NCBI GenBank assembly: GCA_001464935.1
Contig: LNEL01000040.1
Location: forward strand, 1 to 64,000
DNA: 64,000 bases
Direction: 5' to 3'
Source: Gammaproteobacteria bacterium Ga0077536
GTDB lineage: Bacteria; Pseudomonadota; Gammaproteobacteria; Ga0077536
Shown here piece after piece: positions 6,095 to 41,874 of this stretch; position 1 is the first letter of the stretch; every line of letters begins with the position of its first letter. A program made the position numbers and the translations under genes. The notes beneath the pieces are model-generated. The model searched no databases, had not been told where the DNA came from, and saw only the letters and a list, made by a program, of their open reading frames with translations.

Positions 6095-7651
6095 ATGCAC
6101 CTCAGGGGGACTCGATTGAATCTGGACTCGCACACGGTGGCGCCGGCAACGGCAGGCCCGACGTCAACAGACGGTCCGGCGTCGCCGCTGCTCGCGCAGG
6201 CGGCGTTCGCCCTGCTCGCGGCGGTGGCGGCCGCGGCCGCCCTGGCCGATGTGCCCTGGCCCTGGTGCGCCGCCTGGGCGCTCGCGCTGGTCGCCGTGAC
6301 GGCGCTGCGCGATCGCCTGCCCGGTGTGCTGGCGCTGTGGGCTGCGAACGGCGTGGTCTGGGGGATCGGGGCGGCAGGGGCACACACGATTGCCGCCGCG
6401 ACCGGGGTCGCGGTCCTGCTTGCCGCTGCCGCGCCGCTGCTGGCGGCAGGGCGTGTGCCTGCCGGGCGTTACCATCTGCTGGCGCTGGCAGTAGGTGCCT
6501 GTGCGCCGCTGGCCGGCCTGATGCTGGTGACGGGCACGCTCGCCGGCATCGCCACGGCGGCGATGCTCGCGGTCGTCGGCTGGGCCGCGTTCGGCGTGCA
6601 GCAGCGCCTGCACGGCCTGTTCGCCGCGCTCGAGACCGAGACGGCGCAGCGTCAGGCTGCCGAGGCGCTGACCGAGCGTCTCAGCGATGAGGTGCAGGTG
6701 CTCAAGGTCGAGACGCGCGCGGTCGGCGAGACCAAGGACACGCTGGCCGGTGAGCTCAGCAACGCGACGCAGGAACTGGCAGTGCTGCGGACGAAAGCCG
6801 GCGCGCTGTCGACGGTGCTGCAGCGGATCAACCCGTACGACACCGAGACGGGCCTGCTGACCGCCGAGAAATTCGCCAACGTGATGAATCGCGAGTGGGC
6901 GCGCATGCGCCGGCAGGAGTTGCCGCTGAGCCTGATGCTGGTGTCGCTCGACCGCTTCGATGACTTCCAGGCCAAGCACAGCCGGTTGGCCCACGAAGCG
7001 GCACTGCGCAAGATCAGCGACGTGCTGCGCAACGCCGGCAACCGGCCGGGCGACGTCGCCGCGCGGCTCGGACCCGGCGCATTCGCGCTGCTGTTTCCCG
7101 AAACCGATCACAAGCATGTGAACCGGCTGGCCGACGCCGTGCGTTCGCGCATCCGCCAGCTCGGCGTGCTGGCGGATCCGGCCGAGGCGGGCAAGCCGCT
7201 GACGGCCACCGTCGGCATGGCGACGGTGATCCCGAACAACGACATCACGCCGGTCGTGCTCCGTGAGCGGGTCGAAGCGGCGTTGTACGAGGCGCAGTTC
7301 CAGGGGGGCGATCGCAGCGTGCGCTATCGCACGATGGACAGCATCCGCGTCGAACATTGGGATACGGCACAGGAAGGCCAGCTGACCGCCGACAGCGTGC
7401 GACACAAGCTCGCGGTGCTCGGCTACGACGCCGCGCCGAAGACCTATCGACCGGGCGAGACCCCGCCGTCGCGTCGCGTGCCGGTCGACAGCGTGGAGGC
7501 CGTCGTCGAAGGCCAGCTCAAGATCTCGCTCGACGGCGAGGCTCGCGTGCTGAAGCCAGGCGATCTGCTGTTCATCCCGAAGGGCCTGATGACCAGCGTC
7601 GAAGTCGTCGGTGCGCGGCCCGTGCTGTGCCTGGAGGCCATCCGCGCCTGA
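6095..7651 (+). CDS. Membrane protein with coiled coil, degenerate GGDEF domain and C-terminal cupin
   Basis: About 518 residues. Order of parts: several hydrophobic segments (about residues 20-165) forming a membrane domain, a coiled coil (about 170-245, Glu/Ala/Leu rich), a GGDEF-like domain (about 250-410) and a small cupin barrel at the C-terminus (PGDLLFIPKGL). The GGDEF signature reads RLGPGAFALL, so the acidic and second Gly positions of GG(D/E)EF are lost; diguanylate cyclase activity is therefore unlikely, and nucleotide sensing or scaffolding is more plausible (inference). Start is uncertain: ATG 6095, ATG 6065, or TTG 6116, which sits five bases after CAGGGGGA. The long track extension to 5768 overlaps strong hairpins and is doubtful. 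rluF follows 137 bases downstream. Confidence 0.75.
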   Translation: MHLRGTRLNLDSHTVAPATAGPTSTDGPASPLLAQAAFALLAAVAAAAALADVPWPWCAAWALALVAVTALRDRLPGVLALWAANGVVWGIGAAGAHTIAAATGVAVLLAAAAPLLAAGRVPAGRYHLLALAVGACAPLAGLMLVTGTLAGIATAAMLAVVGWAAFGVQQRLHGLFAALETETAQRQAAEALTERLSDEVQVLKVETRAVGETKDTLAGELSNATQELAVLRTKAGALSTVLQRINPYDTETGLLTAEKFANVMNREWARMRRQELPLSLMLVSLDRFDDFQAKHSRLAHEAALRKISDVLRNAGNRPGDVAARLGPGAFALLFPETDHKHVNRLADAVRSRIRQLGVLADPAEAGKPLTATVGMATVIPNNDITPVVLRERVEAALYEAQFQGGDRSVRYRTMDSIRVEHWDTAQEGQLTADSVRHKLAVLGYDAAPKTYRPGETPPSRRVPVDSVEAVVEGQLKISLDGEARVLKPGDLLFIPKGLMTSVEVVGARPVLCLEAIRA

Positions 7652-19651: not shown

Positions 19652-19735
19652 GCCGGCTCCTGTGATCGAGTCTGTGGGCGAAGCAGGCTGCAATAAGCAG
19701 GCCACGCGTGGCATGTAATCTGCTAACGTCTCCGC

Positions 19736-19945
19736 ATGACACTCACCCCCGCCCAGATCGAAGCCCTGGTCAGAGCGAACGCCGATGCGCTGGGGCTCAG
19801 GCTCACGCCCGAACAAATGCCGGGCGTGCTGCGCTACGTCGCACTCGCCGCGGACATGGCGGCGCTGGTCGATGGCCTGCCACTCGGTCGCGACGACGAA
19901 GGGGCCAATGTGTTCGTGCCCGTCGCGCCGGCCGCGCGCGAATGA
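19736..19945 (+). CDS. AtzG-like small subunit (DUF4089)
   Basis: 69 residues matching the DUF4089/AtzG-like family: mostly helical, with [19 protein letters not shown] at the start and [10 protein letters not shown] at the end. In the cyanuric-acid pathway AtzG is an obligate partner of the amidohydrolase AtzE, forming 1-carboxybiuret hydrolase. Its stop overlaps the downstream AtzE-like start by four bases (ATGA), as expected for a heteromeric pair. It starts 84 bases from the divergent isochorismatase-family gene, so both promoters lie in that short gap. Confidence 0.82.
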
Positions 19946-21345
19946 AACCCTGCACGCTCGACGCCGTGACGATCGCCGCCGAGGTGCGCGCCGGCCGGCT
20001 GCGCGCGAGCGACGCGGTCGACAGCTGCCTCGCGCGCATCGCGGCGACTGACGATCGCGTCAATGCGTTCACGACCGTGCTCGATACGCGGGCCCGGGCG
20101 CGCGCGCTGATGGTCGACTCGAAGCCCGATCGACACACGCTGCCGCTCGCCGGCGTGCCGTTCGCGGTGAAGAACCTGTTCGACATCGCAGGCCTGCCGA
20201 CCCTCGCCGGCTCGAAGATCGAACGCGATGCACCGGCCGCCGCGCGCGACGCGCTGCTCGTGCGGCGGCTCGAGGCAGCGGGCGCCATCCTCGTCGGCGC
20301 GCTGAACATGGACGAGTACGCCTACGGCTTCACGACCGAGAACAGTCACTACGGCGCGACCTGCAACCCGCACGACCTCGCGCGTACCGCGGGCGGATCC
20401 TCCGGCGGCTCGGCGGCGGCGATCTCAGCCGGCCAGGTGCCGCTGACGCTGGGCTCGGACACCAATGGATCGATCCGCGTACCGGCGTCACTGTGCGGCT
20501 GTTTCGGCCTGAAGCCGACCTTCGGCCGGCTGCCGCGCACGGGGACTTATCCCTTCGTCGCCAGTCTCGATCACCTCGGGCCGTTCGCGCGCAGCGTGCG
20601 CGATCTCGCGCTCTGTTATGACCTGATGCAGGGCTGGTGCGCCGAGGATCCCGGCTGCGCGCCGCGCGCGGCCGAGCCCGTGAGTGCCGTGCTCGATGAC
20701 ATCGACCTCGGCGGCCTGCGCCTAGCGACGCTCGGTGGCTGGTGGCGCGAGATGGCCGATGCAGATGCACTGGCGGCGGTCTCACTGGTGCGCGAGGCGC
20801 TGGGAGTCACGCGCGACATCGAGCTGCCCGAGGTCGCGCGGGCGCGCGCTGCAGCGTTCCTGATCACGAATGCCGAAGGCGCCAATCTGCACCTGCCCGA
20901 TTTGCGCACGCGCGCGGACGACTTCGAGCCGCTCTCGCGCGATCGCTTTCTCGCCGGCGCGCTGCTGCCGGCGGGCTGGGTGCAGCAGGCGCAGCGCGTG
21001 CGGCGCCGGTTCGCGCACGAGGTTGCGCAGGTGTTCGACACTGTCGATGTCCTGCTCGCACCGGCGACGCCCTGCGTCGCGCCGCTGCTCGGCACCGAGT
21101 GGCTGTCGCTCGGCACGCAGCGCCTGCCGGCACGGCCGAGTCTCGGCCTGCTCGCGCAGCCGCTGTCGTGCATCGGGTTGCCGGTTGTCACGGTGCCGGT
21201 GTGGAACGCGCAGTCGAGTGCGCCCCATCTGCCGCTCGGGGTGCAGGTGATCGCTGCACCGTGGCGCGAGGATCTCGCGTTGCGCGTGGCGGCGGCGCTG
21301 GCGCGTGAGCCGTGGTGTCGCGCGCCGATCGCACCGCTGGCCTGA
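19942..21345 (+). CDS. AtzE-family amidohydrolase (amidase signature)
   Basis: 467-residue amidase-signature enzyme. The Ser-cisSer-Lys triad is present: Lys in [13 protein letters not shown], the Gly/Ser loop [11 protein letters not shown] and the nucleophilic Ser in [12 protein letters not shown]; the NGSIR variant is typical of the AtzE group. AtzE with AtzG deaminates 1-carboxybiuret; related HpxY-type proteins occur in purine or oxalurate loci. The track start at 19708 is upstream of the natural ATG, which overlaps the AtzG-like stop. No cyanuric-acid hydrolase (AtzD) is in the window, so the true substrate is open. Confidence 0.85.
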
Positions 21346-23430: not shown

Positions 23431-23740
23431 GGGGACACCCACCGTTTGCGCCGCGCACCGCATTCGGGGACACCCATCGTGCGCATCGTTCGCACCGACG
23501 ACCTCCCGCAGCATGCAAGGGCACTAATCGGGCACTAATCGGGCACTAATCGGGGACACCCACCCCTTGGCCCGTCATCGGGGGAAATCAGCGACGCCCA
23601 TCTTTTGCGCTGACGACGTGACGCAGCTTGCAGCGACGCGCAATCGGCGCGCGCAATCGGGGACACCCATCGTTCCATCGCGATCGGGGACACCCATCGT
23701 TCCATCGTTCGCGCCGCCGACGTGCCGCAGCATGCAAACG
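23431..23740. repeat. Cluster of GGGGACACCCA repeats (RAYT-associated type)
   Basis: Five exact copies of GGGGACACCCA start at 23431, 23466, 23552, 23659 and 23686, all in the same orientation, plus a decayed copy (GACGCCCATC). Two copies are followed by a second conserved block, CGCAGCATGCAA, and a third by a mutated form, CGCAGCTTGCA. Spacing is irregular, so this is not a CRISPR. The cluster fills most of the roughly 730-base gap between the acyl-CoA dehydrogenase and amidase genes; no gene was seen in the rest of the gap. Confidence 0.85.
23519..23551. repeat. Three tandem copies of an 11-base unit
   Basis: GGGCACTAATC occurs three times head to tail, immediately followed by GGGGACACCCA. 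It looks like a replication-slippage product of the flank AATCGGG of the surrounding repeat family. Confidence 0.9.
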
Positions 23741-23934
23741 GCTGCCCGCGCCCGGCTTGTCAGCGGCGCGTCCGCTGCGGTGGGTGTCCGGACCCTGGCG
23801 AACCGTCGGTCCCCGCCTTGGGGTTTGACGATCCACCATCCCGTTCGCGATATTGCGGAACGGCCGACGGCAGCGCGGCCTGCCCTTATCCCCCTCGATC
23901 GCACAACGGCGTGATGCGCCAGGAGAGCTCCGAC

Positions 23935-25335
23935 ATGGCGGACACCGATCTTCACTACCTCGAACTGCTCGAAGTCGGGCGCCAGATCCAGTCACGCGCA
24001 CGTTCGTCGGTCGACGTCACCCGCGCGATGCTCGCCCGCATCGAGGCGCTGGATCCGCGCCTGCTGAGCTATGTCACGCTGATGGGGGATGCGGCGCTCG
24101 CAGACGCCCAGCGGGCGGACCAGGAGATTGCCGCCGGGCGCGCGCGCGGCCCGCTGCACGGGGTCCCGATTGCGGTGAAGGACCTGCTGTGGACGGCCGG
24201 TGTGCCGACTTCGCACGGCATGCCGATTCATCGCGACTTCCGCCCGACTGAAGACGCGACCACGGTGCGCCGTCTGCGCGAAGCAGGCGCGGTATTGCTC
24301 GGCAAGTTGCAGCAGACCGAAGGCGCGTTCGCCGATCACCATCCGTCGATCACGCCGCCGACGAATCCGTGGGGGCCGTCGCTGTGGTCTGGCGCGTCGT
24401 CGAGCGGTTCCGGTGTCGCCACGGCGGCGGGCCTGTGCTTCGGCTCGCTCGGCACCGATACCGGTGGCTCCATTCGCTTTCCGTCGGCTGCGAACGGCAT
24501 CACCGGTCTGAAACCGACCTGGGGTCGCGTCAGCCGCCATGGTGCGTTCGAACTTGCCGCGTCGCTCGATCACATCGGCCCGATGACGCGCAGCGCAGCG
24601 GACGCCGGCGCGATGCTCGCCGCGATCGCGGGCGCCGATCCGGGTGACCCGACTGCCGTGCCGCTGCCCGTGCCGGACTACCTGGCGCTGATGACGCGCG
24701 GGCTCACGGGTCTGCGCGTCGGGATCGATCGCGCGTGGACGCTCGAGCGCGTCGATGCGCCGACACGCGCGGCGCTGCTCGACGTGCTGCGCGTGGTGGC
24801 GGATGTCGGCGGCGTAGTTCAGGAGATTCAGTTTCCGGACGCCGAACAGGTCACGCAGGACTGGGCACCGCTGTGCGCAGTGGAAACCGCGGTCGCGCAC
24901 GAAGCGACCTACCCCGCGCGCCGCGACGAATACGGCCCCGGGCTCGCGGGCCTGATCGACGTCGGCCGGTCCTTGAGCGCGATGGACTTCCAGAAGATGC
25001 AACTGCGCCGCGCCGAGTTCTCCGGCCGTGTGCACGCGCTGTTCCAGTCCGTCGACCTGCTGCTGATCCCGGCGATGTCGGTCGCCGCGCCGTCGGTTGA
25101 ACTGATGTCGAAGTTCGGTGAGGACGCGGATCTCCTCGCCGGCATGTTGCGTTACACCTGCCCGTTCGACCTGACCGGCAGCCCCACGATCACGCTGCCC
25201 GGCGGCCAGACCGCCGACGGCGCGCCGATCGCGTTCCAGTTCGTGGCCGCGAACTTCGCCGAACATCTGCTGGTGCAGGCCGGCTGGGCGTACCAGCGCG
25301 TGACCGACTGGCATCGACACCATCCGGCGCTGTGA
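23935..25335 (+). CDS. Amidase-signature family hydrolase
   Basis: 466-residue amidase. Triad elements are complete: Lys in VPIAVKDLLWTAG, the Ser loop SGASSSGSGVAT and nucleophilic Ser in TDTGGSIRFPSAANG, followed by GLKPTWGRVSRHGAFELA. No signal peptide, so cytosolic. ATG 23935 has AGGAG upstream; the track extension from 23722 runs through the repeat cluster and is rejected. It belongs to the general amidase group; whether it acts on amides, carbamates or ureides is not readable. It stands alone between repeat clusters. Confidence 0.87.
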   Translation: MADTDLHYLELLEVGRQIQSRARSSVDVTRAMLARIEALDPRLLSYVTLMGDAALADAQRADQEIAAGRARGPLHGVPIAVKDLLWTAGVPTSHGMPIHRDFRPTEDATTVRRLREAGAVLLGKLQQTEGAFADHHPSITPPTNPWGPSLWSGASSSGSGVATAAGLCFGSLGTDTGGSIRFPSAANGITGLKPTWGRVSRHGAFELAASLDHIGPMTRSAADAGAMLAAIAGADPGDPTAVPLPVPDYLALMTRGLTGLRVGIDRAWTLERVDAPTRAALLDVLRVVADVGGVVQEIQFPDAEQVTQDWAPLCAVETAVAHEATYPARRDEYGPGLAGLIDVGRSLSAMDFQKMQLRRAEFSGRVHALFQSVDLLLIPAMSVAAPSVELMSKFGEDADLLAGMLRYTCPFDLTGSPTITLPGGQTADGAPIAFQFVAANFAEHLLVQAGWAYQRVTDWHRHHPAL

Positions 25336-32645: not shown

Positions 32646-32679
32646 ATAAAAAAGCCGGCGCCACAGGTGGCGCCGGCTT
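32646..32679 (-). terminator. Intrinsic terminator of the tandem amidase gene
   Basis: On the minus strand the sequence reads GCCGGCGCCA-CCTG-TGGCGCCGGC followed by TTTTTTATT, a ten-base-pair GC stem with a U-run, about 30 bases after the amidase stop. This is the cleanest intrinsic terminator in the window. Confidence 0.9.
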
Positions 32680-32707: not shown

Positions 32708-35700
32708 TTACGGCATGGCGAGCACCCGGTCACCGGGATGGCAGAGTTCCTTCGTGAAGAAGGCGCTGCCCGGCACACAGCGGTACATGCTCGGGTTGGT
32801 CACGCTCGGCGCCCGACGCTGAAATGACGAGCCCTGCTCGAACGCATGTCCAATCGAGAGCAGCTCGGCCTCGTCGAACGCGGTGCCGACGAAGCTGACG
32901 CCCACCGGATTGCGTCCCTGGTTGCCAGTACCCTCACTGGCCGGCACGGTCAGCACGGGATAGCCGGCCCGATCGGCATGGCCGATCAGTGGGCTCGCCG
33001 CGATGCCGTTGCCCGCCGGCACCACGATCGCGGCGAGGTCATCCGCCGGATCCGCGGTTCCTGCCGCGAGTATCCCGTCGATCAGCTGCTGCGTGCCCGC
33101 CTTGCCGTCCGCCAGATCGGCGGCATATGTCGACAGGTCGGGCAGGTTCGCCGCCTCGAGTTCGCGCTGTTGATACTTCAGGCCCTCCACCGGATTCGCG
33201 ACGTTGTAGTCGATGATCTGCTGCAGGGTTTTCGCACCGCGACCGCGCAGCGTGGGCAGGTACTGATTGAGGTCGCGTTTGAACTCGCGCAACACGATGC
33301 TCGGCGGGTTCACAGCGGGCGTCGCGATCGTCACCTCCACGGTCGTTGCGCCCAGGCCCGTCAGGGTTGCGATTGCCGCCTGGTAGGCCGCGTTCGCATT
33401 GGCGACGAACGCGATCTTCTTGCCGGCGAGCGCGCCCGGCGCGAGGCCGGCCAGGTAGTTCGGTACCGGCGGCTGTCCCAGTGTCGCCGGGTCGGCCACA
33501 TCCGGGCCTGCAATGACCTGCAGCTGGAGTGCCGCATCGTAGACTGAGCGCGCAATCGGTCCCGGGGCATCCTGGGACTTCGCGACCGGCAGCACACCCT
33601 TGCGGCTGACGAGACCGACCGTCGGCTTGAGACCCACGACGCCGGCAACACTCGCCGGGCCGATCAGCTGCGCCGTATCGGGGGAGGTCTCGAGCCCGAC
33701 CGCCATCGCAGCGAGACCGGAGGCGGTCGCGGCCGCCGAGCCGCCGGACGAGCCTGCGGGTGTCTTGTCGGTATCGGACGGCAACAGCACCTGGCCGCCG
33801 AGCGAGGAGTATCCGGCAGGCATGTTTTCGTCGAACACGCCGTTCAGCTCGCTGATGTTCGCCTTGCCGACGATCACCGCGCCGGCCGCACGCAAGCGCG
33901 CGACGACGGTCGACTCACCCGTCGGCAACAGGCCCTGCAGCGCGATCGAGCCGCCGGTGGTCGGCAGTCCGCGCACGTCCATCGAGTCGTCGACGATCAC
34001 GGGGATGCCGTGCAGGGGCCCGCGCGCGCCGCGCAGCCTGCGTTCGAGATCCATGGCCCTGGCCTCCTTGAGCGCACCGGGATTGACGAGGCGCACGGCC
34101 TGGACCGCCGGGCCGTCGGCATTCGTCAGCGCGATGCGCGACAGGTAGGCGCGCGTCAGCGTCTCGGCGCTCAGCGTGCCGGCCGTCATGCGCGCCTGCA
34201 GGCTCTGGACCGTTTCCGTTTCGAGCGGGAACGGCAGCGTCGTGGTGGTGGGGCCGGCAATCACGGACGGCACGATCGCCTCGTAGTCGGGATTGCAGGC
34301 GCCGCGCTGGTGAAAGGCGGGTTTCGGGTTCGTCTTTGCGCAACGGTACATGCTCGGATTGATCTCCGTGACCGGCTGGCGCTTGAGCGTGCCCTGCTCG
34401 ATCACGTAGGCGACACCGAGCAGATCACGCTCGCTGTAGGCCGTGCCATAGACGTTGAGACCCACCGCGCGGCGCGTGGTCGGGTTGTAACCCATCGGCA
34501 CCGTGATCTGCGGATAGCCCGCACGCGGACCGTTCGGCGCCGAGCCCACGATCGCGATGAAGTCATCGCTGGTATCGTTCGGCGTATCGTTGGTCAGCAG
34601 GCGGTCGATGCTCTGACGGGCGATGATTTTTCCCTGCAGCAGTGCGTTTCTGTAGTTGGCGGCGATCGTCGGGTCGCCGAGATCGATGGCGTTCGCATTG
34701 AGGTGCGTGTTGTGACCGAACTTCAGCGCCTGGTCGGCCTCCTCGATGTTCTTCGCGATTTCTTCATCGAGCGACTTGATCGGCGCGTTCGGTCCGAGAT
34801 TCGCGTAATAGCGGTTGATGTCCCGCTTCGCCTCGGTCGTCAGGATGTTGCCGGGTGGAAAGGTCAATGCCGGGCTGAGGACCGGACGCAGCACCATGAT
34901 GGCGCCCGCCGCGACCAGCGCGTTGTAGGCTTCGCCGAGCGGGGTTGTGGCGCCGGTGACGGGATCGAGCAGATCGCCGTTGTAGCCAATGCGCTTGCCG
35001 TTGACGAAGTTCAGATCCAGCGCCGACAGGTAGTTCGGCAACGGGACCGGCTGCGGGGGAATGATGATGTCGTCTTCCGCCGGTGTGAGGCCCCAGAGGC
35101 CGTCGAGACTGCTCTCGGGATCGGGCCCGGCAATGGCGGTCAGCGTATAGGCGGCATTGGCAACGGTGCGATCCATTGGACCGGCGGTGTCCTGCGACGC
35201 CGAGATCGGGCCGATGCCGACGCCCGGCACGAGGCCGACCGTCGGGCGCAGGCCCACGATGCCATTCGCCGCCGACGGGCTGATGATCGAACCTGAAGTC
35301 TCAGTGCCGATCACCAGCAGCGACAGCGCCGCCGCAGAGGCCGCGCCGCTGCCCGAAGACGAACCGCTCACATTCTGGTCGGCATCGACCGCGTTGAGCA
35401 CCTGGCCCGTGAGGTTCGAAAAGCCCGACGGCTGGTTGCCGAAGAAGTTCGCATACTCCGACAGGCCCAGCTTGCCGAGCACGAGCGCGCCGCGCTCACG
35501 CAGTTTCTCCACGACACCGGAGTCATTCTGCGGGAATGAGTTGCGCAGCGAGTAGTTGCCGTTCGAGGTGTACATGCCCTTGACGTCGATGAGGTCCTTC
35601 ATCAGCACCGGCATGCCGTGCACAGGACTGCGCGCTTTGCCCATGCGCCGCTCCTGATCGAGCTTGCGGGCCTCGGCGAGCCATTGCTTGTTGAGCTGCG

Positions 35701-35944
35701 TCACCGCGTTCAGACCGGGGCCGCGCTTGTTCAGGGCCTCGATGCGCGCAATGTAGGCGCGTGCGAGCGCCTCACTGGTCAATGTCCCCGCCTCGAGCAT
35801 CGCACGCACCTGCGGTGCAGTGAGTCGTTCGAGGTCCAGCGGTTTGTTGGCCTGCGCACCCGCTGCCGCGAGTGCACAGGCCAGACCGAGCAGCCGCCCC
35901 GCTGCCTGTCGTTTCAGCGATGATTTTCCCGACTTCTTCCGCAT
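32708..35944 (-). CDS. Exported tandem amidase, second domain apparently inactive
   Basis: 1078 residues, about twice the usual amidase length. Residues 1-33 form a signal peptide (LLGLACALAAAGAQA). Domain 1 (about 35-560) keeps the whole triad: Lys116 in VLMKDLIDV, the SGSSSGSG loop and nucleophile Ser219 in TETSGSIISPSAANG. Domain 2 (about 580-1078) retains the GSSGGS loop, but the Lys position is Asp652 (VIVDDSMDV) and the nucleophile position is Asp756 (LETSPDTAQL), so it should not catalyse. Both halves end in a similar SMYRC(A/V) cysteine motif, supporting internal duplication. The gene is monocistronic with an intrinsic terminator. Substrate is unknown; a periplasmic or surface location is inferred. 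Confidence 0.87.
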   Translation of the reverse strand: MRKKSGKSSLKRQAAGRLLGLACALAAAGAQANKPLDLERLTAPQVRAMLEAGTLTSEALARAYIARIEALNKRGPGLNAVTQLNKQWLAEARKLDQERRMGKARSPVHGMPVLMKDLIDVKGMYTSNGNYSLRNSFPQNDSGVVEKLRERGALVLGKLGLSEYANFFGNQPSGFSNLTGQVLNAVDADQNVSGSSSGSGAASAAALSLLVIGTETSGSIISPSAANGIVGLRPTVGLVPGVGIGPISASQDTAGPMDRTVANAAYTLTAIAGPDPESSLDGLWGLTPAEDDIIIPPQPVPLPNYLSALDLNFVNGKRIGYNGDLLDPVTGATTPLGEAYNALVAAGAIMVLRPVLSPALTFPPGNILTTEAKRDINRYYANLGPNAPIKSLDEEIAKNIEEADQALKFGHNTHLNANAIDLGDPTIAANYRNALLQGKIIARQSIDRLLTNDTPNDTSDDFIAIVGSAPNGPRAGYPQITVPMGYNPTTRRAVGLNVYGTAYSERDLLGVAYVIEQGTLKRQPVTEINPSMYRCAKTNPKPAFHQRGACNPDYEAIVPSVIAGPTTTTLPFPLETETVQSLQARMTAGTLSAETLTRAYLSRIALTNADGPAVQAVRLVNPGALKEARAMDLERRLRGARGPLHGIPVIVDDSMDVRGLPTTGGSIALQGLLPTGESTVVARLRAAGAVIVGKANISELNGVFDENMPAGYSSLGGQVLLPSDTDKTPAGSSGGSAAATASGLAAMAVGLETSPDTAQLIGPASVAGVVGLKPTVGLVSRKGVLPVAKSQDAPGPIARSVYDAALQLQVIAGPDVADPATLGQPPVPNYLAGLAPGALAGKKIAFVANANAAYQAAIATLTGLGATTVEVTIATPAVNPPSIVLREFKRDLNQYLPTLRGRGAKTLQQIIDYNVANPVEGLKYQQRELEAANLPDLSTYAADLADGKAGTQQLIDGILAAGTADPADDLAAIVVPAGNGIAASPLIGHADRAGYPVLTVPASEGTGNQGRNPVGVSFVGTAFDEAELLSIGHAFEQGSSFQRRAPSVTNPSMYRCVPGSAFFTKELCHPGDRVLAMP

Positions 35945-37585: not shown

Positions 37586-38590
37586 CTATTCGTTGATGCG
37601 GCTATAGAGCCGTCGTGCTGCGGTCTGCCCCCGAATCCAGCGCCAGCCACACCGCGAAGCCAGGCTCTTGAGTCTATGCGGCGCGCCAATGAAGAGTCGG
37701 AAGCGCGTGTGCAACTCGGCGACGCTGTTCAGCCACTCTCCGGGCGACAGGCCAAGGCTTTCGAGCAGACGCGGCGTCGAGTCAGGTATAGCGCCTCGCT
37801 TGCGCAGGTGCACGGCGCGGCCACTCGAGTCCAGGAGGTCGAGATAGTCTTGAAGGTTGAACGGCAGGCCGGCATCTTCGCCCTGCCGCATCGCCCCGGC
37901 GAAGGGCCGCAAGGCAGGTTTGACGTTCCCGACGTCCGCTTTGGGTGTGGCGATGACTTCGTGCAACCGCTGCTGGCCGGACGTGAACTCGGACGTCTCG
38001 ATCGAGTCGGCTATCCCGGCCCGTACCGGGTTCAGATCGACATAGGCCATCACCGTCAACAGCGCCTCTTCATCGAGCAGCGCTTGCGACTTGAAGCGGC
38101 CTTCCCAGAAGCGCCCCGTGCAACCGTCTTCCTTGTTGGCGAGGCGGGCAATGAATTCATTGAGGCAACGCATGAACCAGCCCAGGTCCGTCAGGCGCCC
38201 CCGCCAGCGGGCAATGCAATCGGCAAGCAGGGCGGATTCGCTTGCGTCGAGCGTCGCGCCGTTCAGGTAGCTCGCGGCACAGGCAGGGCCCGTGTAGAGC
38301 TGGCGCCAGCGCTCGACGACCTCACGAGCCGTCCACTGGGCGGCTCGGCCCGGCGCGAGGCGCAGCACGAGGTGATAGTGATTGCTCATCAACGCATAGG
38401 CGCAGAGATCGATGGCGAAGACTTCGGTGAGCAACGCGAGTCGCTCGAGGATGCTGGCCTTGCGGTGCTCGAACGATCTACCGGAAGCGGGGTCGCGACC
38501 GCAGAGGAAAGCCTGGCGCACGCAGCGGCCGATGCAGTGGTAATAGGGCGTAACACTCGCGGACACGAGCGATGAACGGGCACGAGTCAT
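37586..38590 (-). CDS. REP-associated tyrosine transposase (RAYT, Y1/IS200-like HUH)
   Basis: 334-residue single-strand-DNA transposase of the Y1_Tnp family. It shows the RAYT N-terminus (VTPYYHCIGRCVRQAFLCG), the HUH motif in MSNHYHLVLRL near residue 70, the catalytic-helix signature VMAYVDLNPVRAGI and an extended C-terminal domain. RAYTs mobilise REP/REPIN sequences rather than themselves and occur singly in genomes. Both sides carry inward-facing copies of the window-wide repeat: GGGACACCCA at 37362 and TGGGTGTCCC at 38671 and 38706. ATG 38590 is the natural start. The full-length frame suggests it is functional. Confidence 0.9.
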   Translation of the reverse strand: MTRARSSLVSASVTPYYHCIGRCVRQAFLCGRDPASGRSFEHRKASILERLALLTEVFAIDLCAYALMSNHYHLVLRLAPGRAAQWTAREVVERWRQLYTGPACAASYLNGATLDASESALLADCIARWRGRLTDLGWFMRCLNEFIARLANKEDGCTGRFWEGRFKSQALLDEEALLTVMAYVDLNPVRAGIADSIETSEFTSGQQRLHEVIATPKADVGNVKPALRPFAGAMRQGEDAGLPFNLQDYLDLLDSSGRAVHLRKRGAIPDSTPRLLESLGLSPGEWLNSVAELHTRFRLFIGAPHRLKSLASRCGWRWIRGQTAARRLYSRINE

Positions 38591-40437: not shown

Positions 40438-41874
40438 ATGGCCAATACAGATTACGGTGATCTCGACGCGACCGCGCAGGCCGCACTGGTGCGCACAGGA
40501 CAGGTGAGTCCGCTCGAACTGGTGGAAGATGCCATCAGGCGATGCGAAGAAGTGAACGGCAGCCTGAATGCGGTGATCACCGACATGTATGAGCATGCCC
40601 GGGACGCCGCGCGGCGCCCGCTCGCCGATGGGCCGTTTGCTGGTGTGCCGTTCCTGATGAAGGACTTCGGCGCCGAAGTCGCCGGGTTTCCGTTCTTCGA
40701 GGGTTCCGCGTTCCTGAAAGGCTATATCCCGAGCGAAGATTCCGAAATCTACCGGCGCTTCTGTCGCGCGGGTCTCATCACGATCGGCAAGACCAACCTG
40801 CCGGAGTTCGCGATCGGGACTACGACAGAACCGCGCATGTTCGGCGCGACGCATAATCCGTGGGATTTGAGCCGCACGCCAGGCGGTTCGAGCGGCGGTG
40901 CCGGCGCGGCGGTTGCGGCACGGGTGGTGGCGATGGCCCATGGCAACGACGTCGGTGGCTCGATTCGCATTCCATCGTCGTGCTGCGGGCTCGTCGGCCT
41001 GAAGCCGACCCGGGGCCGCGTCACGCTCGCGCCGCACTACGGAGACGTGCTCGCCGGCAGCTTCAACGAGCATGCCTTGACGCGCACCGTGCGCGACAGC
41101 GCAGCGCTGCTCGACGCCATCGCCGGACCAGGCATAGGCGAACCCTACACGCCGACCGCGCCGGGGCGGCCCTATGCCACGGAGGTCACGCGGGATCCAG
41201 GGCGCCTGAGAATCGGTTTTTCCACCGTGACACCCCTGGGCGATGCGCTGGATCCGGAATGCGTGAAGGCCGTACACGAGACGGCGAAACTGTGTGAGTC
41301 CCTGGGGCATGAAGTGGTCGAAGATGCGCCGAAATTCGACGCCATGGAGATGTGGACCAAGTTCACGACGATGCTCGCCGCACTGGTCAACTGGGCGGTG
41401 ATGGACTGGGCACGCCGCACGGACAAGGTCCCTGCACCGGAACACTTCGAACCCTTCGTATGGGCCTTCTCGGAACGCGGCCGTGGGCAGAGCGCTGCCG
41501 ACTACCTGCTCGCGCTCCAGGACGTCCAGAAGCAGTCTCGCCTGTATTGCGAATTCTTCACGCGCCATGACGTCCTGTTGACCACGACACTGGGTCAGCC
41601 GCCCGTGCCATTGAACACACTGGTCTATGCCGGCGATCCATTCGAACTGCGTCGGCGCAGCGCGAAGTTTTCGCCCTATACCTACCTCACCAATGCCACT
41701 GGGCAGCCGGCCATCTCGCTGCCCCTGCACTGGACGCCCGACAACATGCCCGTTGGCCTGCATTTCGCTGCCCGGCACGGTGAGGAAGATTTGTTGTTCC
41801 GCCTAGCCGGCCAGTTGGAAGTCGCGCGGCCGTGGGCATCGCGGAAGCCGCCCGTGTGTTCCACGCCGGGCTGA
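40438..41874 (+). CDS. Amidase-signature hydrolase, NylA/6-aminohexanoate-cyclic-dimer-hydrolase-like
   Basis: 478-residue cytosolic amidase. Triad: Lys in VPFLMKDFGAEVAG, Ser loop PGGSSGGAGAA and nucleophile Ser in NDVGGSIRIPSSCCG, then GLKPTRGRVTLAPHYGD. The FFEGSAFLKGYIPSEDSE segment and general layout are like NylA-type and related short-amide hydrolases; the assignment is approximate. AGGAG sits at ideal spacing before ATG 40438. The gene stands alone, flanked by repeat-bearing gaps. Confidence 0.87.
   Translation: MANTDYGDLDATAQAALVRTGQVSPLELVEDAIRRCEEVNGSLNAVITDMYEHARDAARRPLADGPFAGVPFLMKDFGAEVAGFPFFEGSAFLKGYIPSEDSEIYRRFCRAGLITIGKTNLPEFAIGTTTEPRMFGATHNPWDLSRTPGGSSGGAGAAVAARVVAMAHGNDVGGSIRIPSSCCGLVGLKPTRGRVTLAPHYGDVLAGSFNEHALTRTVRDSAALLDAIAGPGIGEPYTPTAPGRPYATEVTRDPGRLRIGFSTVTPLGDALDPECVKAVHETAKLCESLGHEVVEDAPKFDAMEMWTKFTTMLAALVNWAVMDWARRTDKVPAPEHFEPFVWAFSERGRGQSAADYLLALQDVQKQSRLYCEFFTRHDVLLTTTLGQPPVPLNTLVYAGDPFELRRRSAKFSPYTYLTNATGQPAISLPLHWTPDNMPVGLHFAARHGEEDLLFRLAGQLEVARPWASRKPPVCSTPG

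What the first reader, a model, noticed from the sequence alone, without database searches (positions are those of the whole stretch)
32708..35944. Exported tandem amidase in which the second domain has lost Lys and nucleophilic Ser
The protein has two full amidase-signature halves. Domain 1 keeps Lys116 and Ser219. In domain 2 the equivalents are Asp652 and Asp756, while the GSSGGS loop survives. Both halves end in a matching SMYRC-type motif, so this is a duplication followed by decay or repurposing of one half, fused in frame and with a signal peptide. A pseudo-enzyme partner built into a secreted amidase is unusual and might regulate, bind substrate or stabilise the first half.
Basis: partly seen in the sequence, partly recalled or inferred. 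Interest (0 to 1): 0.6.

Follow-up and report, generated by a model that had tools for sequence, protein, structure and literature searches.

The report
Exported amidase with a dead twin
This gene makes a secreted enzyme built from two copies of the same amide-cutting domain, of which the first looks active and the second has lost its catalytic residues but has been kept for a long time in unrelated soil bacteria, which suggests that the dead copy has a real job such as binding or steadying.

Summary
Window 32708-35944 (-) encodes a 1078-aa protein with a signal-peptide-like start and two amidase-signature halves (38% identical). Half 1 keeps Lys116, Ser195 and Ser219. Half 2 has Asp652 for Lys and no nucleophile. 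One correction: half 2 has a 3-residue insert, and alignment plus the predicted fold put Gln759, not Asp756, opposite Ser219.

About two dozen tandem relatives were found (Solirubrobacter and other Actinomycetota, one Myxococcota MAG). The first half is intact in all tandem proteins scored. In the 20 window-type second halves the Lys is always lost (Asp 17, His, Ser, Asn), the Ser is always Gln or Glu, and Asp653, Ser732 and Ala758 are invariant. These halves are as conserved as the first halves and under purifying selection, so this is old repurposing, not recent decay. Relatives whose two halves are both intact exist (four Solirubrobacter-order genes), so a dead half is not inherent to the architecture.

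Most likely an exported peptide-amidase-like enzyme whose dead half packs against the active half and binds ligand or stabilises it. That function is inferred, not shown. No paper describing such a protein turned up in the library searched. Rated a new variant of a known kind.

The parts
32708..35944 (-). CDS, 1078-aa exported tandem amidase
   Evidence: single open frame; Pfam Amidase in both halves
35849..35944 (-). signal-peptide-like N-terminus, residues 1-32 (basic n-region, LLGLACALAAAG h-region, AQA)
   Evidence: read from the sequence; low pLDDT over 1-31 with a helix at 19-31 in the model; relatives begin with similar stretches. No signal-peptide predictor was run
34280..35836 (-). 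half 1 (residues 37-555), intact amidase-signature domain
   Evidence: Pfam 201.5 bits; triad intact in every tandem first half scored
32765..34228 (-). half 2 (residues 573-1060), pseudo-amidase domain
   Evidence: Pfam 215.8 bits with Lys and nucleophilic Ser absent
35597..35599 (-). catalytic Lys116 of half 1
35360..35362 (-). cis-Ser195 of half 1
   Evidence: spacing to the nucleophile as in known amidase-signature enzymes (own knowledge)
35288..35290 (-). nucleophile Ser219 of half 1
33989..33991 (-). Asp652 at the Lys position of half 2 (D in 17 of 20 relatives, H/S/N in the others)
33749..33751 (-). Ser732 of half 2, equivalent of the cis-Ser, invariant in 20 of 20
33674..33682 (-). 3-residue insert in the nucleophile loop of half 2 (residues 755-757, PDT), holding Asp756
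33668..33670 (-). Gln759 of half 2, opposite nucleophile Ser219 (Q in 19, E in 1 of 20)
   Evidence: alignment and helix register in the model
32972..32974 (-). Asp991, half-2-specific residue conserved in all relatives covered (17 of 17)
34340..34342 (-). Cys535 of half 1, inferred disulfide with Cys550
   Evidence: conserved Cys; the bond is an inference
34295..34297 (-). Cys550 of half 1, inferred disulfide with Cys535
   Evidence: conserved Cys; the bond is an inference
32777..32779 (-). Cys1056 of half 2, inferred disulfide with Cys1068
   Evidence: conserved Cys; the bond is an inference
32741..32743 (-). Cys1068 of half 2, inferred disulfide with Cys1056
   Evidence: conserved Cys; the bond is an inference
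32652..32679 (-). intrinsic-terminator-like hairpin with T run just after the stop codon
   Evidence: 12-pair stem

Best explanation
The gene encodes an exported peptide-amidase-like enzyme made of two fused copies of one amidase-signature domain. Half 1 carries out amide hydrolysis with the usual Lys-cisSer-Ser triad. Half 2 is a long-conserved pseudo-amidase: its general base and nucleophile are gone and its oxyanion loop is rebuilt by a 3-residue insert, but the fold, the GSS loop and the Cys pair are kept. Half 2 probably packs against half 1 and contributes without catalysis, most likely by holding ligand (the peptide substrate or a related molecule) in its rebuilt pocket for the active half. 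Shown: the architecture, the loss, its conservation, purifying selection and the age of the loss. Inferred: activity of half 1, lack of activity of half 2, export, and the binding role.
For: Triad intact in every tandem first half scored; no Lys and no Ser nucleophile in any of the 20 window-type second halves. Asp653, Ser732 and Ala758 are 20/20 and Gln759 is 19/20. Mean pairwise identity is 0.64 for both halves. dN/dS in the three closest fully covered pairs is 0.14-0.19 for half 2 and 0.08-0.13 for half 1. 72 of 98 positions that are invariant in active relatives are kept in half 2, against 69 in half 1. Of 19 residues conserved only in half 2, 11 lie in the amidase-signature segment, more than among other conserved residues (Fisher p 0.007), which points to a rebuilt pocket. 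Model with pLDDT 85.5 and pTM 0.86 for the full chain, in keeping with a defined placement of the halves. Nearest solved fold is peptide amidase Pam 1m22, TM 0.88 by target length. The subfamily with two intact halves is followed by an M14 zinc carboxypeptidase gene in all four loci, which fits work on C-terminally amidated peptides.
Against: No activity or binding has been measured. The model's coordinates and inter-domain error were not available, so the interface and pocket were not inspected. The Lys position is D in only 17 of 20, so Asp652 itself is not essential. No conserved neighbour was found for the window-type genes. Three relatives carry a frame shift inside half 2 and one at the linker, so in some strains half 2 may be dispensable, unless these are sequencing errors. 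The NCBIfam PRK08137 cut-off is passed only because two halves are summed (706 bits); each half alone falls short (352 and 364 against 534).
Confidence: 0.5

Rival explanations
1. Half 2 is only a structural partner: it makes an internal pseudo-dimer that folds and steadies half 1 outside the cytoplasm, with no ligand in its old active site.
For: Fold-determining positions are kept (72 of 98), the model is confident over both halves, and the lost Lys position tolerates D, H, S and N. Two other second-half types lost the site in different ways: Ssoli_C15 and Pflav_b with K to S and a long insert; G548 with K kept but both Ser changed to Gly.
Against: A spent pocket should drift, yet Gln759, Ala758, Ser732, Asp991 and nearby residues are nearly fixed, and half-2-specific conserved residues concentrate in the signature segment. 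Single-domain relatives such as Pam do without such a partner.
Confidence: 0.3
2. Half 2 is still an enzyme with altered chemistry, using the retained Ser732, the new acids (Asp652, Asp756, Asp991) or a bound metal.
For: Ser732 and Asp653 are invariant, and new acidic residues are conserved.
Against: No invariant Ser, Thr or Cys at the nucleophile site; Asp652 is replaced by Ser, Asn or His in three relatives, and Asp756 by others in two; no such chemistry is known to me in the family.
Confidence: 0.1
3. Recent decay: half 2 lost its residues by neutral mutation and is on the way out.
For: Tandem relatives with an intact second half exist, and some relatives have frame shifts within half 2 or at the linker.
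Against: Same altered loop in Actinomycetota, Myxococcota and this probably gammaproteobacterial genome; all dead second halves in one clade with support 99/99 and one change of state; dN/dS well below 1; no stop in the window copy.
Confidence: 0.03

Closest known systems
Peptide amidase Pam of Stenotrophomonas maltophilia (PDB 1m21, 1m22, 5ac3)
   Same: Closest solved sequence and fold for both halves; half 1 keeps its triad
   Different: Pam is one domain with one active site; here two fused domains, the second without Lys and Ser nucleophile
NCBIfam PRK08137 / PRK06828 amidases
   Same: Best-scoring curated models for each half
   Different: Neither half alone reaches the curated cut-off (352 and 364 bits against 534 for PRK08137)
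Both-halves-intact tandem amidases of Solirubrobacter-order bacteria (found here: L043, L046, L047, L089)
   Same: Same exported two-domain layout, about 50% identity to the window protein
   Different: Both triads intact, M14 carboxypeptidase gene next door
Carboxypeptidase D (PMC11266112)
   Same: Exported tandem hydrolase with an inactive last domain proposed to bind proteins or present substrates
   Different: Unrelated metallopeptidase fold, three domains, animal protein
Receptor tyrosine phosphatases with active D1 and inactive D2 (PMC7320164, abstract)
   Same: Active domain followed by inactive duplicate
   Different: Unrelated fold, intracellular signalling
Toc64, plant amidase-like import receptor (from memory, not tested here)
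   Same: Amidase fold recalled as lacking catalysis
   Different: Single amidase-like domain fused to TPR repeats, plant organelle membrane

Membership tests
Amidase signature family (PF01425), half 1 | Profile match to the amidase domain | tested here: met
   201.5 bits, cut-off 27
Amidase signature family (PF01425), half 1 | Lys-cisSer-Ser triad | tested here: met
   K116, S195, S219
Amidase signature family (PF01425), half 2 | Profile match to the amidase domain | tested here: met
   215.8 bits
Amidase signature family (PF01425), half 2, as an active enzyme | Lys-cisSer-Ser triad | tested here: not met
   D652, S732, Q759
Pseudoenzyme | Catalytic motif absent while fold is kept | tested here: met
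Pseudoenzyme | Maintained by selection | tested here: met
   dN/dS 0.14-0.19 in the closest fully covered pairs, identity equal to half 1
Pseudoenzyme | No catalytic activity | not testable with these tools
   needs protein
Peptide amidase (Pam) | Best match among solved structures | tested here: met
   1m21/1m22/5ac3 top hits
Peptide amidase (Pam) | Hydrolysis of C-terminal peptide amides | not testable with these tools
   inferred from homology and from M14 neighbours of the sister subfamily only
NCBIfam PRK08137 equivalog | Curated score cut-off (534 bits) by one domain | tested here: not met
   352.4 and 364.4 bits per half; 706 only when both are summed

The most novel reading that the evidence does not exclude
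The rebuilt pocket of half 2 is a dedicated ligand sensor or substrate clamp (conserved Gln759, Ala758, Ser732, Asp653, Asp991) that controls or feeds the active half, making this a family of bacterial exported hydrolases regulated by a built-in dead copy.
Probability: 0.35. Interest if true: 0.65.

Novelty: new variant of a known kind. Interest (0 to 1): 0.45.

Why it matters
Exported tandem hydrolases with one dead copy are known in animals (carboxypeptidase D), but none turned up here for the amidase-signature family. The set found contains active-active, active-dead (window type) and two further active-dead designs, so the cost and gain of losing a second active site can be compared directly. 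If half 2 binds ligand, it would explain why bacteria keep a 500-residue non-catalytic domain.

Tried and rejected
Programmed frameshift at the shared one-base shift in both Phytohabitans genes: no slippery heptamer that lets both tRNAs re-pair was seen on inspection of the sequence; left unexplained. Conserved gene neighbourhood for window-type genes: none seen. Plasmid carriage: no tblastn hit at 1e-60. Other tandem copies among the window genome's relatives: none in 36 genomes of the family, 369 of the class or 399 of the phylum; the other hits there were single-domain. Foreign base composition of the gene: GC 0.667 against 0.668 for the window, GC3 in the range of neighbours, so transfer is not visible in composition. 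A separate duplication for the both-intact subfamily: the tree prefers it, but holding all second halves together is not rejected (p-AU 0.21). Papers on tandem or pseudo amidases of this family: none found.

Full report
What is there. Window 32708-35944 on the minus strand is one open frame of 1078 aa, beginning with a signal-peptide-like stretch ending AQA at residue 32 and followed by an intrinsic-terminator-like hairpin at 32679-32652. Pfam finds one Amidase domain in each half. The halves are 38% identical, E 4e-86. Half 1 has K116, S195 and S219. Half 2 has D652 at the Lys position, keeps S732, and has the nucleophile loop TSPDTAQLIGP in place of TSGSIISP.

Correction to the finding. The half-2 loop is three residues longer. 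Across relatives the alignment puts Q759 opposite S219, and in the AlphaFold model (pLDDT 85.5, pTM 0.86) the following helix starts at 221 and at 761, so S219 and Q759 hold the same register. D756 lies in the insert.

Relatives. A scan of species genomes gave full-length tandem relatives of about 60% identity in Solirubrobacter, Motilibacter and Phytohabitans, and one in a Myxococcota MAG, split over two contigs, at 70-75%. Whole-genome searches in those groups added more. The window's own family (36 genomes), class (369) and phylum (399) gave no other tandem gene, so the gene probably came by transfer, though its composition does not betray this. That the window genome is gammaproteobacterial is an inference: same-class genomes G307 and G1608 carry a protein that looks nearly the same as Pam where the two can be compared in print.

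State of the two halves. In every tandem protein scored the first half is intact. Second halves fall into four kinds: the window kind (Lys lost, 3-4 residue insert, Q or E for Ser); both-intact (four Solirubrobacter-order proteins); Lys to Ser with a long insert (Ssoli_C15, Pflav_b); and Lys kept with both Ser changed to Gly (G548). In 20 window-kind halves, D653, S732 and A758 are 20/20, Q759 19/20, D652 17/20, and D991 17/17 of those covered.

Selection and age. Mean pairwise identity is 0.64 for both halves among window-kind proteins. In the three closest fully covered pairs (Motilibacter-G621, S. phytolaccae-G470, G669-G616) dN/dS is 0.14-0.19 for half 2 and 0.08-0.13 for half 1; wider pairs rise to about 0.4, where saturation makes the method rough. 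A careful tree with the active-site columns removed puts all dead second halves in one clade (99/99) and needs one change from active to dead. The tree cannot tell one loss with later divergence from several losses along that clade. A single origin of all second halves, both-intact ones included, is not rejected (p-AU 0.21).

What it probably does. Nearest solved structures are peptide amidase Pam. The both-intact subfamily is followed by an M14 zinc carboxypeptidase gene in four of four loci, which would make sense if the amidase frees the C-terminus of amidated peptides for the carboxypeptidase. Half 1 of the window protein is therefore read as an exported peptide-amidase-like hydrolase; the substrate is inferred. 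Half-2-specific conserved residues (19) concentrate in the signature segment (11; Fisher p 0.007; the segment 690-775 was chosen by eye before the count), which favours a rebuilt binding pocket over a purely structural prop. Carboxypeptidase D, with an inactive third domain proposed to bind or present substrates, is the closest functional parallel (PMC11266112).

Limits. The per-group identity and active-site tables include a few partial sequences, and gapped cells were set aside or are shown as gaps. Some relatives are close to each other, so counts of sequences are not counts of independent events. E-values for whole-genome searches are per genome. The PRK08137 cut-off is met only by summing two halves. 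No coordinates were available for measuring distances. The literature search covers open PubMed Central papers only.

Noticed in passing
L014:8374 region, L015:9949 region: Both Phytohabitans tandem genes carry the same one-base shift within half 2 (near window residue 795), while the downstream part still reads as conserved protein in another frame.
   Followed up: partly
L044 (reverse strand near 7187), L097 (reverse strand near 6700): A third tandem gene (Solirubrobacter soli) shifts frame in half 2 a little further on, and in G690 a frame shift just after SMYRC separates the two halves into two frames.
   Followed up: partly
L043:7742-9736, L046:8045-10213, L047:2200-4482(-), L089:1900-4151(-): The both-intact tandem amidases are each followed by an M14 zinc carboxypeptidase gene on the same strand.
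   Followed up: yes
window 19666-21342, 23614-25332, 40438-41874: Three further amidase-family ORFs in the same window; the whole genome gives 18 matches to the query.
   Followed up: no
L010:6602-6955: Motilibacter tandem amidase ends in a FIMAH domain (Pfam E 5.5e-06); Solirubrobacter copies have C-terminal extensions without a Pfam match.
   Followed up: partly
window 37586-38590 (-): REP-associated tyrosine transposase-like ORF (NCBIfam E 3e-10, below the cut-off) near the tandem amidase.
   Followed up: no
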